From: an uncultured bacterium
Lineage (GTDB): Bacteria; Acidobacteriota; Thermoanaerobaculia; Thermoanaerobaculales; Thermoanaerobaculaceae
DNA length: 64,000 nucleotides
Direction of reading: 5' to 3'
NCBI GenBank assembly: GCA_937924755.1
Contig: CALEVZ010000025.1
Span: 1 to 64,000 of the forward strand
Shown: piece after piece, positions 23,190 through 29,254 of the stretch
How positions within the stretch are numbered: position 1 is the first letter of the stretch
Layout of the letters: every line of letters starts with the position of its first letter
Program-made: the position numbers and the translations under genes
Notes under the pieces: model-generated
What the model was told of the DNA's origin: nothing
The model's input: the letters and a program-made list of their open reading frames with translations, nothing else
Databases searched by the model: none

Positions 23190-24122
23190 GTGCAAGCGCG
23201 GATGGCGGGCTCCCCTCGCCTCGTCCAGGTGTTCTACCGTCTATACTTCGGGTTCTGGATACCGACACTGGTGTGGGCCTCGACCCGCTGGCCGGTGGAG
23301 CTGATGTACTGGATGGCGCGCTGGCTGGTGATTGCCCCTTTCGTCCTGCTGCGGCCCAAGTACATGCGGGCCGTGCGAGGAAACTGCGCACGCATTCTCG
23401 GCCTGCCGCGGGCGCATCCGGATGTCCGCCGCACCGCCTGGCGCATGATGTTCGAACACGCCTACCACTGGATCGACTTCTTCCGCTGGTCGCAGCAGCC
23501 CGCAGAAACGCTCTCCGAGGCGGTGGCGGCCGTCGAAGGGGGTGAGTTCTACGAGGCAGCCCGCGCCAGCGGCCGCGGAACGCTGCTGCTCACCGCCCAT
23601 TTTGGCAATCCGGAGGTGGGGGCGGTGGCCCTGGGAAAGACCAGAGAGCCAATCGCGGTGCTTTACTGGCGCGATCGTTTCGCCACCGCCGAGGAGTTTC
23701 GCGCCCGCATGCGGGCGCTGGGTCGGGTAAAGGGCATTCCGGTAGATGCCTCGCCATTCTCGGTGGTGCCAGCCCTGCGAGTGCTTCGCGAGGGAGGGGT
23801 GCTGGCGGCCCACGGCGATCGGGATTTCAACAACACCGGCTGGGCGTTGCCCTTTTTCGGCGAACCCGCGCGCTTCCCACCGGGACCGTTCCTGCTCGCC
23901 TCCCGGGCCAACGCGGTGATCGTGCCGGTATTCTTTGTGCTCGAGCCGGATCGCCGCTTTCGGGTGGTCTACGAGCCGCCCATCGTGATCGATGGCGAGG
24001 AGGGGGAAGAGGAGAATGTACGGCGGGCGATGGCGCGCTGGGTGAACGTGCTCGAGCGCCGCGTGGCCCAATTGCCGCATCAGTGGTACTGCTTCTACCC
24101 CTTCTGGGAGCCGGCGCCGTGA
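23190..24122 (+). CDS. LpxL/HtrB-family lysophospholipid acyltransferase
   Basis: A 310-residue inner-membrane acyltransferase related to late lipid A acyltransferases. It has an N-terminal membrane segment (about 15-45) and the HX4E catalytic motif in LLTAHFGNPEVG. The acyl-binding region HGDRDFNNTGWALPFFGEPA and the C-terminal HQWYCFYPFW are also typical. It supports a diderm cell envelope with a lipid-A-like glycolipid, or it may act on another acyl acceptor. The GTG at 23190 matches the leaderless spacing from TAGAAT; ATG 23202 is a possible alternative. Confidence 0.88.
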   Translation: MQARMAGSPRLVQVFYRLYFGFWIPTLVWASTRWPVELMYWMARWLVIAPFVLLRPKYMRAVRGNCARILGLPRAHPDVRRTAWRMMFEHAYHWIDFFRWSQQPAETLSEAVAAVEGGEFYEAARASGRGTLLLTAHFGNPEVGAVALGKTREPIAVLYWRDRFATAEEFRARMRALGRVKGIPVDASPFSVVPALRVLREGGVLAAHGDRDFNNTGWALPFFGEPARFPPGPFLLASRANAVIVPVFFVLEPDRRFRVVYEPPIVIDGEEGEEENVRRAMARWVNVLERRVAQLPHQWYCFYPFWEPAP

Positions 24123-24133
24123 CGTCAGCGCCG

Positions 24134-25357
24134 TCAGTACTCGGCCAGCAACCACCACGCCTCATCGCAGGCAGCGTCCATCTGCAGGGCGCGCTTGAGA
24201 TGCGCCACCATCCGCGGGCGCCAGCGCTCGTGCTGGATTGCCCAGCGCGCCAGGTCCACCTGTACCGCGGCGGAGGGAGCCAGGTTGGCGGCGCGGGTGA
24301 GGAGTCGCTACGTCACCTTTTCGTCCTCCCCCTCCGCCAGTATGCGCAGGGCCGTGCGCCGGAAGGACTCTCCCTTGCGGCGGTTGAAGGTCTCTCTCGG
24401 CTGCGCCGAAGCGCCGGAGTATCTGGCCATGGCCTCGAGCTCCACCTCTTCCAGGCGAGCCAGCAACTCCTTCACGCGGGGGCTGGCCGGCGGCAGAACC
24501 CGGGCGCTGGCGGGGCCGGTGGCGGCGGGCGGGGACTGCGCATGGATCGCCGTATCGACCACCGATGACGGCTTTCGTTGTGGTGCGGCCAGCTCCGTGG
24601 CGACCAGCACCGCCAGCGCCCGCACGGTGTCGAGGAACTGATCCGGTGCCAGGGCGCGAAGAGCATCGAGGGTCGTGGCCGGGGTCAGCTGGTCGAGCAC
24701 GAATCGTTCCAAGCCGCCGGGCTCGAATCCCTTGTCGATCCCGACGGTGGCCGGCACGGCTTCCCAGCGGGCTCCGCCGCCCAGGAGTCGTTTCAGTACC
24801 TCCACGTCGGGCACCCGACGCACCCCGGCGGCGAAGAGGGCGCGCAGAGAGCGATCCACGGTTTCCCTGCCCGCCGGCACGGCCGGGCCCGTTGTCGCCG
24901 CGAAGCTTCCGTCAGCGACGACAATCCTGGCGGCCAGGGCCAGGCTCAGCTCCTCCAGTTCCACCTGCAGGCGCAGGGGATTGAGCTCGCCGCTGCGAAC
25001 CAAAGCGGCACCCAACGGCTCGCCCTGCGCACGGGAGTTGAGGGCGGGGGCGAGCACCGGTCCGCTCACCAGTCCCCCTGGTGAGGAGCCAGGTGCCAAG
25101 GCGGCCCCTCGCCGCTGCGAAGAACCGGTGCAGCTGCTTCTCTCGACAGCATGCCGCTTGCAGCGTGGACACCCCCCGTGGCGGCGCGGTTCAGCGACAG
25201 TCGGCGGAGGCCGCTTCTCCAGCCGCCATCGCGGACGTGTCGGGCCCCGGCAAGACTGCCGCGGGCAACCCCCTTTCGCCGTCAATCCTACAGCCTGGCC
25301 GGAGCGGGACGCGCACGGGCTTTGCTTCAACCTGCCGGTTCTGCTGGCAAGCTTCAA
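24134..25357 (-). pseudogene. decayed PATAN (DUF4388)-like plus TPR gene with in-frame TAG
   Basis: The track lists 24308-25357 (349 aa, TTG start). From about residue 110 the frame resembles a PATAN/DUF4388 domain: GGLVSGPVLAP, PLGAALVRSGELNPLRLQVE and SLRALFAAGVRRVPDVEVL. It stops at TAG 24310-24308. The same frame then continues for 57 codons as good TPR sequence (RLLTRAANLAPSAAVQVDLA, HLKRALQMDAACDEAWWLLA) to a TGA at 24134. The first 110 residues are Arg/Pro/Cys-rich and do not look coding, which suggests a frameshift or lost 5' end. I infer a pseudogene with a nonsense change and a damaged start. A sequencing error or stop-codon readthrough are the alternatives. PATAN proteins are common in Acidobacteriota and Deltaproteobacteria. 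Confidence 0.5.
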
Positions 25358-25397
25358 ACGATGCGAACCTTGGCGCCAGGACTGCGGGCGGGCGCAG

Positions 25398-27032
25398 CTA
25401 ATTCTTGTGAATCTCGAACACCCTCAAAGATCCCGGCGTTGTCCGCCCATCGGAGGACATGACGACCAGGCCTTTGCCGCCGCCAGCGAGGGGAACCAGC
25501 GCGAAATCATTGATGTAGGCATCCCCGAATTCCAGCTCTGCGGCCCGCTCCCGGTAAAGAGTCCCATCGGTTCCCTGTAGGTAGATGTCCATTCCTCCAT
25601 TCTGCCGGCCGAGCACGAGATCGAGGCGGCCGTCGCCGTCCAGATCGAGAAGCCGAGCGGTCGTGAAACGGTCGAAATCGGCATGCTCGGCGTGCAGCAG
25701 GTCGCGACTCACCACCACGTCGTCCCCCTGCTGGGAGATGCGGAAAATGGCCACCGCGTTCATGGGGTGCTGGCGTCCGCCGGAGCGGGGGCTCTGGGCA
25801 AAACCGACCACCGCCTCGTCGCCCTCCTCGCCATCCAGGTTTCCGGCGGCCACTGCCAGGCCATAGGCCAGGTAGGGGAACTCCGGGCTGGACACCGGGC
25901 GGAAGGTGCGGCCGTCGCCCGAGTTGAGATAGATCCAGTAGGGAAACACGTTCTTGTGGGACGAAACGAGGATGTCCGGGGCTCCGTCACCGTTGAAATC
26001 CCCCACCGCCACCTTGTCACCGTAGAGGTTGGGCGTGGACCCGGAGACGTCCACATTGACCCACCCATCGGCACGGTTGAGAACCACCTGCAGCAGCCCG
26101 TTGGCAAGCCCCTGGCTGGTCCCGAGGTCGATATCCAGTTCCGCCAAGAGCGCCACATCGGTGCGACCATCGCGGTCGAAGTCGGCCAGCGCCAGGGCCC
26201 GCGACGACACCATCATGTTCGCCCGCGGCAGCTCCACGAAACGAGTGAAGTCGCCCTTGCCGTTGCCGTACATCACCCAGGCGCGCTTGAAGTGGCTGGT
26301 GAGGACGATGTCCAGGTGGCCGTCGCCATCGAAGTCAGCCACGCCCACGTCGCCGTAGTCCATGGAGATGGATGGCCAGCGCGCCTCTCGCCACAGGCGC
26401 CACCCGGTTTTCGTCTGCAATGCCACCGAAGGCCGCCCGTCACCGAGACGCGGTGGCGGGAGCACCAGGTCGGCGAGCCCGTCGCCGTCGAGGTCAGCGA
26501 CCGCCAAGCCCATCTGCCAACGCCCCTCCTTGGGCAGCCCCTCGCTGCGCTCGACAAAGCGCAGCCGATCGGTGAAGGGCGGCGGCACGTACACCTCGGA
26601 AACGTTGAGGACGAAGTTGGCGTCGCTGTGTTCCTTCTGCATGATCGCCATGGCTTCCATCTGCTCCCGCGCCAGCCAGGCGTTGTGGGCGCCCGATTCG
26701 GGATCCTCGATGGGTAGATTGCGGAGATAGAGGAACTCCTCGTCCTCGTCGACGACCTCCATCTTGATCTTTATCACCGGATGGGGCCAGGCAAACTGCT
26801 GCGACAGACGGATTGCCTTGGCCTTGGGGACCTTGTGGACGTTGTAGTACTCCTTCATGAACTCTGCCCACTCGTCGACCACGGGGGCCTCGGCCGCAGG
26901 CGTGGGGGTGGCAGGAACCGGCATTTGTGGCAACGGCATGGGCGGCCGCGGTGCTGGCGGCGGCGATTGCGCTCCCGCCTGCGTAGCGACCACCACGAGC
27001 CCTGCAAGTAGCACGAAGGTACGAACCGACAT
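25398..27032 (-). CDS. secreted FG-GAP/VCBS repeat protein
   Basis: A 544-residue exported protein. It has a signal peptide (MSVRTFVLLAGLVVVATQAGAQ) and then a Pro-rich spacer. An alpha-rich region follows (EWAEFMKEYYNVHKVPKAKA). From about residue 165 come FG-GAP/VCBS repeats with Ca-binding loops: ADLDGDGLADLVLP, ADFDGDGHLDIVLT, ADFDRDGRTDVALL, GDFNGDGAPDILVS and LDLDGDGRLDLVLG. These should form a seven-bladed beta-propeller resembling integrin alpha chains. The ATG at 27032 has AAGGAGG about 6 nt upstream; the track's longer frame runs into the permease gene out of frame. It lies 35 nt downstream of the ABC-2 permease and is probably cotranscribed. The role may be adhesion or scaffolding on the surface. 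Confidence 0.85.
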   Translation of the reverse strand: MSVRTFVLLAGLVVVATQAGAQSPPPAPRPPMPLPQMPVPATPTPAAEAPVVDEWAEFMKEYYNVHKVPKAKAIRLSQQFAWPHPVIKIKMEVVDEDEEFLYLRNLPIEDPESGAHNAWLAREQMEAMAIMQKEHSDANFVLNVSEVYVPPPFTDRLRFVERSEGLPKEGRWQMGLAVADLDGDGLADLVLPPPRLGDGRPSVALQTKTGWRLWREARWPSISMDYGDVGVADFDGDGHLDIVLTSHFKRAWVMYGNGKGDFTRFVELPRANMMVSSRALALADFDRDGRTDVALLAELDIDLGTSQGLANGLLQVVLNRADGWVNVDVSGSTPNLYGDKVAVGDFNGDGAPDILVSSHKNVFPYWIYLNSGDGRTFRPVSSPEFPYLAYGLAVAAGNLDGEEGDEAVVGFAQSPRSGGRQHPMNAVAIFRISQQGDDVVVSRDLLHAEHADFDRFTTARLLDLDGDGRLDLVLGRQNGGMDIYLQGTDGTLYRERAAELEFGDAYINDFALVPLAGGGKGLVVMSSDGRTTPGSLRVFEIHKN

Positions 27033-27986: not shown

Positions 27987-27997
27987 GCTAGGTAGTG

Positions 27998-28357
27998 ATG
28001 AGTCAGGCGACAATGCCCCTCATGCCCGCCTCGGCGGTTGGACGGCGTATCCGACAGGAGCGCCTGGAGCGGAACCTCACCCAGACGGAGCTGGCGCGCC
28101 AAATCGGCATTCAACAGTCCGATCTGTCGCGCATGGAAAAGGGGGAGTACCGCGTCCCTCTGGACGTTCTCTTCCGCATCCTGCAGACGTTCCAGATCTC
28201 CTTTTCCGAGTTTTTCGAGGACGGGCGGCGGGGCTTGACGGAACGGGAATCAGCGCTGCTACGCTCCTTTCGTATGCTCAGCGAGGATGCACAGGCAGAA
28301 GTCGAGGCCTTCGTGGAGTTCAAGATCGCCCGTGAGTCGGGTGGGAGTGCCCGCTAG
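27998..28357 (+). CDS. XRE-family HTH transcriptional regulator
   Basis: A 119-residue DNA-binding protein. Residues about 15-75 form a Cro/CI-type helix-turn-helix: RRIRQERLERNLTQTELARQ, then IQQSDLSRMEKGEYRVPLDV. The C-terminal tail (LTERESALLRSFRMLSEDAQ, AEVEAFVEFKIARE) is helical and may dimerise or contact a partner. Start choice is uncertain: ATG 27998, 28013 and 28022 are all in frame, and the track's 27995 is GTG. The stop TAG is directly followed by the ATG of the TPR gene with no base between. A strong promoter and a large inverted repeat lie just upstream, suggesting autoregulation. Confidence 0.9.
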   Translation: MSQATMPLMPASAVGRRIRQERLERNLTQTELARQIGIQQSDLSRMEKGEYRVPLDVLFRILQTFQISFSEFFEDGRRGLTERESALLRSFRMLSEDAQAEVEAFVEFKIARESGGSAR

Positions 28358-29254
28358 ATGGCTCCGACGGAACGTTATCTGCGGCTGACCGCCCTGGCTC
28401 AACGCGCCTTCTCCCGTGGACGGCTCGAGCGCTCGCTGCGCCTGTTCGAGGCGGCCGAGGCGGAGGCGAGGCGAGGCGGCGACCGGGAGCTGGTCGACCG
28501 GGCCTTCTGCAACCGCTGCGTCGTCCTCGCCGAGCTGGACCGACTGGATTCGGTCTCGGTCGAACTCAAGCACATCCTCATGCGCAGCCGCGATCCCTTC
28601 ACCGCCTGGATGGCTGCCTACTACACTTCCCAGGCGTACGAAGCGGAGGGCGTCCTTTCGCGCGCGCTGGCCTACGCCCGCCGCGCTTCCGAGCTGGCCG
28701 AGATCTGCGGACAGCCCCGCAGCCTCGCCGCTTCGGGCAACCAGCAGGGCGTGCTGGCGCTCAAGGAGTCAAAGTTCGCCGAGGCGGCGCAGTGCTTCGA
28801 AATGGTCCTCCGGCTCGAGGCCGAGCACTCGGAGGATGTTATTGGCAGCGCCATTACCCGCGATAACCTGGGGTATTGCCTGATGTGCACCGGGCGGGTC
28901 AGCGAGGGCATGGCGCTGTGTTGCGAGGCCGCCGCGGCGATCGAGAGCGTCGGCGCCCGCCAGTATCTTCCCGAAATCTATCAGGACATCTGCTACGGTG
29001 CATTGCAGCTGCAGCGGTACGCCGAGGGGCGTATGTGGGGTGAGAAGGCCCTGGCTCTGGCGCGCGAGTACAATCACCAGGGAGTGGAACGGAACACCCT
29101 CATGCTGCTCGCCGACGCTGCCATGGACGAGGGGGACGAGGAGGCCGGGGAGAAATACCTCGACCTGCTCGCCAGCCATTACCCCGACCTCAAGGGCATG
29201 AAGAGCTTTTTCGCCGCCTTCAATGTCCGCGAGGTCATCAACCTGAAGGCGTGA
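28358..29254 (+). CDS. TPR-repeat protein paired with the XRE regulator
   Basis: A 298-residue all-helical cytoplasmic protein made of about seven TPR-like repeats (ERYLRLTALAQRAFSRGRLE, AMAYYTSQAYEAEG-type, AITRDNLGYCLMCTGRVSEG, EKALALAREYNHQGVERNTL). It has no signal peptide or catalytic motif. It starts at the base after the XRE stop codon, so the two are translated together. In RRNPP regulators (Rap, PlcR, ComR) an XRE-like HTH and a TPR peptide receptor are fused or act together; here they are separate but adjacent. Binding to the XRE protein and modulating it is a reasonable inference. The next gene encodes an exported protein. Confidence 0.85.
   Translation: MAPTERYLRLTALAQRAFSRGRLERSLRLFEAAEAEARRGGDRELVDRAFCNRCVVLAELDRLDSVSVELKHILMRSRDPFTAWMAAYYTSQAYEAEGVLSRALAYARRASELAEICGQPRSLAASGNQQGVLALKESKFAEAAQCFEMVLRLEAEHSEDVIGSAITRDNLGYCLMCTGRVSEGMALCCEAAAAIESVGARQYLPEIYQDICYGALQLQRYAEGRMWGEKALALAREYNHQGVERNTLMLLADAAMDEGDEEAGEKYLDLLASHYPDLKGMKSFFAAFNVREVINLKA

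What the first reader, a model, noticed from the sequence alone, without database searches (positions are those of the whole stretch)
24134..25357. PATAN/TPR gene with an in-frame TAG and intact reading frame beyond it
The frame stops at TAG 24308-24310, but the same frame goes on for 57 codons as clear TPR sequence before a TGA. The 5' third is also unlike coding DNA. This looks like recent decay of a PATAN family gene, or an assembly error, or less likely suppression of TAG.
Basis: seen in the sequence. Interest (0 to 1): 0.55.

Follow-up and report, generated by a model that had tools for sequence, protein, structure and literature searches.

The report
Decaying PATAN/TPR gene, truncated both ends
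This is the damaged remnant of an ordinary bacterial gene that relatives still carry intact: its beginning is out of frame and unrecognisable, its end is missing, and a stop codon interrupts what is left, so it is routine gene loss, not a new genetic code or a new system.

Summary
On the minus strand a frame runs from 25357 to TAG 24310-24308, then continues 57 codons to TGA 24136-24134. All 21 homologues read through the TAG column, with variable residues (V, L, H, I, A, Y), and run 35-52 residues beyond the window's TGA. That TGA is therefore premature too. At the 5' end homology stops being in frame near 25075; nine more residues match in another frame, and nothing is recognisable upstream. 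One homologue (G002) is convergent with the same acyltransferase gene, so it is the same gene by position. The copy is a decaying PATAN (DUF4388)/TPR gene of a Thermoanaerobaculaceae (Acidobacteriota) genome. Decay is uneven: after the TAG it keeps 14/23 conserved residues (orthologues 22-23/23; p=4e-5), before it 21/29 (orthologues 22/29). This suggests that the C-terminal end was lost first, and that a shortened protein ending at the TAG may still be made or was made until recently. TAG suppression is unlikely: release factor 1 is present, none of 44 tRNAs reads TAG, and the tail is the least constrained part. A single assembly error cannot explain lesions in three places. Ordinary; low interest.

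The parts
24137..25075 (-). recognisable body of the decayed PATAN/TPR gene (313 codons including the TAG)
   Evidence: 30-35% identity to intact homologues in G002, G005, G008; coding-like GC by codon position
24308..24310 (-). in-frame TAG
   Evidence: 21 homologues carry V/L/H/I/A/Y there
24137..24307 (-). 57 codons after the TAG: first TPR, poorly conserved (NPxW motif lost)
   Evidence: 14/23 conserved residues kept against 22-23/23 in orthologues
24134..24136 (-). second premature stop (TGA); the last 35-52 residues of all homologues are missing here
25077..25103 (-). remnant RLGTWLLTR in another frame, colinear with RLGSWLVAR of G002; the frame changes near 25075
   Evidence: 1 of 20000 shuffles reaches the score at this place
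25104..25397 (-). stretch where about 60 N-terminal residues are expected; no recognisable homology
   Evidence: 422 of 500 shuffles score as high; non-coding composition
24308..25069 (-). possible shortened frame: GTG 25069 to TAG, 253 aa, with AGGGGG 4 bases upstream of the GTG (use not shown)
   Evidence: sequence; conserved residues kept normally before the TAG
23190..24122 (+). intact convergent neighbour, lipid A acyltransferase-like (PF03279); marks the position shared with G002
25398..26987 (-). FG-GAP repeat protein upstream of the relic; not next to the orthologue in G002

Best explanation
The locus is a decaying copy of a PATAN (DUF4388)/TPR gene that stands intact at the same place, convergent with the same acyltransferase gene, in a related genus. 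Three damages are shown: the first 60-70 residues are gone or out of frame, a TAG interrupts the frame, and the last 35-52 residues (second TPR) are missing next to the acyltransferase stop. Inferred: the C-terminal side was lost first (3' deletion and/or TAG), the TPR remnant then drifted, and the 5' end broke later. No intact copy of this orthologue was found elsewhere in the genome, so the full-length function has been lost here.
For: Homologues read through the TAG and past the TGA in 21 of 21 cases. Synteny: G002 carries glycosyltransferase, sugar transferase, GBBH-like, TPK-like, acyltransferase and then the intact gene in the same convergent arrangement. Colinear remnant RLGTWLLTR in another frame, 1 of 20000 shuffles. 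Nothing recognisable upstream. Branch of this copy 2.13 against 0.67 for G002, while the neighbouring acyltransferase gives 0.42 against 0.28. Near-invariant NPxW motif lost after the TAG; conserved residues after the TAG 14/23 against 67/69 in three orthologues, p=4e-5. The only other match in the genome is a weak paralogue.
Against: Before the TAG the copy keeps conserved residues as well as intact orthologues do (21/29 against 22/29), has no other stop or frame change over 255 codons, and keeps a coding composition. So the middle part may not be dead. The genus has only this one genome among those held, so the lesions could not be confirmed in a second genome, and reads could not be seen.
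Confidence: 0.72

Rival explanations
1. The gene was trimmed at both ends but still works: a protein of about 253 aa is made from GTG 25069 to the TAG, which is now its normal end, and only the sequence after the TAG is debris.
For: Conserved residues before the TAG kept as in intact orthologues, those after it lost; no stop or frame change over 255 codons, coding composition; AGGGGG 4 bases before GTG 25069; orthologues in genus g4 have also lost part of the N-terminal domain.
Against: It would lack the PATAN core and both TPRs, the only recognisable domains; no Pfam family in the remaining part. Absence of stops is not strong evidence: at 0.1 substitutions per site, 30% of neutral simulations show none. 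No promoter-like site by a simple scan.
Confidence: 0.2
2. Assembly or sequencing error in an intact gene.
For: The genome is an 86-contig draft; single-base errors can create a TAG or a frame change.
Against: It would need independent errors at the TAG and near 25075, plus loss of about 60 N-terminal residues and of the 3' end beside an intact neighbour; residue-level decay after the TAG is not an assembly effect.
Confidence: 0.05
3. TAG is read through or decoded by a suppressor tRNA.
For: 57 homologous codons in frame after the TAG.
Against: Release factor 1 present at 514 bits; 44 tRNAs, none with anticodon CUA; the sequence after the TAG is the less constrained part and ends at a second premature stop.
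Confidence: 0.02

Closest known systems
Intact orthologue in G002:C83 (JACQZW010000017.1, Acidobacteria bacterium NC_groundwater_1577), ORF L046:6575-7972, 465 aa
   Same: Same convergent position beside the acyltransferase gene; 32-35% protein identity over the body
   Different: No internal TAG; complete N-terminal part; second TPR present; its stop overlaps the acyltransferase stop
PATAN domain proteins (Pfam PF14332, DUF4388), first described in PatA (Makarova et al. 2006, cited in PMC7690835)
   Same: Orthologues of this gene score as DUF4388 (G005 35 bits)
   Different: The window copy has lost the domain core and scores with no family; the cyanobacterial PATAN proteins described there are CheY-like response regulators linked to type IV pili
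Bacterial pseudogenes with frame changes and premature stops (surveyed in PMC3711429)
   Same: Frame change, premature stop and truncation in one lineage only
   Different: Nothing beyond the unequal decay of the two parts

Membership tests
Bacterial pseudogene | Intact homologues extend beyond the interruptions on both sides | tested here: met
Bacterial pseudogene | More than one inactivating lesion | tested here: met
   TAG, 3' truncation, frame change near 25075 with loss of the N-terminus
Bacterial pseudogene | Loss of constraint on the protein sequence | tested here: inconclusive
   clear after the TAG (14/23, p=4e-5), not seen before it (21/29 against 22/29)
Bacterial pseudogene | No functional product | not testable with these tools
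   needs transcripts or proteins
PATAN (DUF4388)/TPR family | DUF4388 domain match | tested here: not met
   window copy: no Pfam family; orthologue G005 35 bits, over the cut-off; G002 22 bits, just under it
PATAN (DUF4388)/TPR family | Descent from a member, by sequence and position | tested here: met
Recoded or suppressed TAG | tRNA with anticodon CUA | tested here: not met
   none among 44 tRNAs of a 96.9% complete genome
Recoded or suppressed TAG | Constraint kept after the TAG | tested here: not met

The most novel reading that the evidence does not exclude
A PATAN/TPR gene cut at both ends lives on as a short protein made of its middle domain alone, with an in-frame TAG taken over as its normal stop; the middle would then be a separate functional domain without a Pfam family.
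Probability: 0.2. Interest if true: 0.25.

Novelty: new member of a known kind. Interest (0 to 1): 0.1.

Why it matters
Little beyond annotation. It shows a stepwise loss of one gene in one lineage of Thermoanaerobaculaceae, beside a conserved envelope-gene block, and gives a clean case in which decay after a premature stop runs ahead of decay before it. It also removes a candidate for TAG recoding in Acidobacteriota.

Tried and rejected
TAG suppression: rejected on tRNAs, release factor 1 and loss of constraint after the TAG. A natural end at the TAG or at the TGA: rejected, since no homologue ends at either. Remnants of the PATAN core upstream of 25103: a gapped match (HRF...) looked tempting but 422 of 500 shuffles score as high. 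The remnant RLGTWLLTR is not significant in an open search (21 of 300 shuffles), only where colinearity demands it. A second, intact copy in the genome: not found. A nearer relative of the same genus: none in the collections searched.

Full report
What is there. The finding lies on the minus strand. From TTG 25357 the frame is open to TAG 24310-24308 (349 codons), and the same frame continues for 57 codons to TGA 24136-24134. The window is bases 1-64000 of contig C25 (72,132 bases) of a draft genome of 3.35 Mb, 86 contigs, 96.9% complete. Its relatives are Acidobacteriota of the family Thermoanaerobaculaceae, judging by record titles.

Homologues. Read through the TAG, the frame finds matches in 21 of 60 related genomes. 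The three best (G008, G005, G002; E 2e-31 to 6e-28) align from about residue 94-105 to residue 407, across the TAG. In an alignment of 21 homologues and paralogues the TAG column holds V 11, L 3, H 2, I 2, A 2, Y 1, and all 21 carry 35-52 more residues after the window's last codon. So neither stop is the natural end. The missing piece is the second TPR. The TGA lies 11 bases from the stop codon of the convergent acyltransferase gene (23190-24122), which is intact and ends like its orthologues in genus g4 (PFW plus a few residues).

Same gene by position. In G002 the block glycosyltransferase, sugar transferase, GBBH-like, thiamine pyrophosphokinase-like, acyltransferase is followed by the intact 465-aa gene in the same convergent orientation. 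There the two stop codons overlap. In genera g4 and g6 the gene is at other places, and no copy was found beside the acyltransferase in the other relatives' loci. On the other side the order differs: the window has an FG-GAP gene upstream of the relic, G002 does not.

The 5' end. Homology in frame starts near 25075. Upstream, codon-position composition is not that of a gene. In another frame the nine residues at 25103-25077 (RLGTWLLTR) match RLGSWLVAR, which in G002 directly precedes the first in-frame residue. In an open search that match is not significant (21 of 300 shuffles); at the place where colinearity requires it, 1 of 20,000 shuffles and 2 of 20,000 random places reach its score. Farther upstream nothing is recognisable (422 of 500 shuffles as high). 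About 60 N-terminal residues, with the PATAN core, are therefore lost or unreadable.

Uneven decay. The copy's branch is 2.13 against 0.67 for G002, while the adjacent acyltransferase gives 0.42 against 0.28. Split at the TAG: before it, relic 1.66 and G002 0.71, conserved residues 21/29 against 22/29 in each of three orthologues; after it, 2.25 and 0.45, 14/23 against 22-23/23 (Fisher p 4e-5). The NPxW motif, present in 20 of 21 homologues (NPLA in G003), is lost. These counts say the tail lost its constraint earlier or more fully than the middle. The order, 3' end first and 5' end later, is inference. A shortened protein from GTG 25069 to the TAG is possible but not shown. Neutral simulation does not exclude simple recent death, because a GC-rich sequence stays free of stops for long (30% of runs at 0.1 substitutions per site).

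Other explanations. Release factor 1 is present and none of the 44 tRNAs found has the anticodon CUA. Together with the loss of constraint after the TAG this makes suppression unlikely. One assembly error cannot explain a TAG, a frame change with loss of the N-terminus, and a lost 3' end, but reads were not available.

What the intact gene does. The orthologues combine a weak to clear DUF4388 match with C-terminal TPRs. PATAN response regulators in cyanobacteria are thought to act on the type IV pilus apparatus (PMC7690835), and PATAN-domain proteins also occur in Myxococcus xanthus (PMC11580455). A similar adaptor role here would be extrapolation. In this genome the full-length function is gone, and no second copy was found.

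Verdict. It is an ordinary decaying gene; pseudogenes of this sort are common in bacteria (PMC3711429).

Noticed in passing
L046:7969-7972: In G002 the intact gene and the convergent acyltransferase gene share the palindrome CTAG as overlapping stop codons.
   Followed up: partly
L049:7103-8278, L051:6785-7948: In genus g4 the orthologue lies divergent from gltX and has lost about 40 residues of the N-terminal domain; G003 no longer scores as DUF4388 though the frame is intact.
   Followed up: partly
window 25398-26987 (-): FG-GAP repeat protein, also scored by the model TcdB_toxin_midN (E 7e-8), probably only through the repeats; no sign of a toxin.
   Followed up: no
window 27995-29254 (+): Cro/C1-type HTH gene followed directly by a TPR protein gene, possibly a regulator pair.
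   Followed up: no
L022:1261-2799 and similar loci in genus g5: Paralogues of 512 aa carry a DnaJ domain between the DUF4388 region and the TPRs.
   Followed up: no
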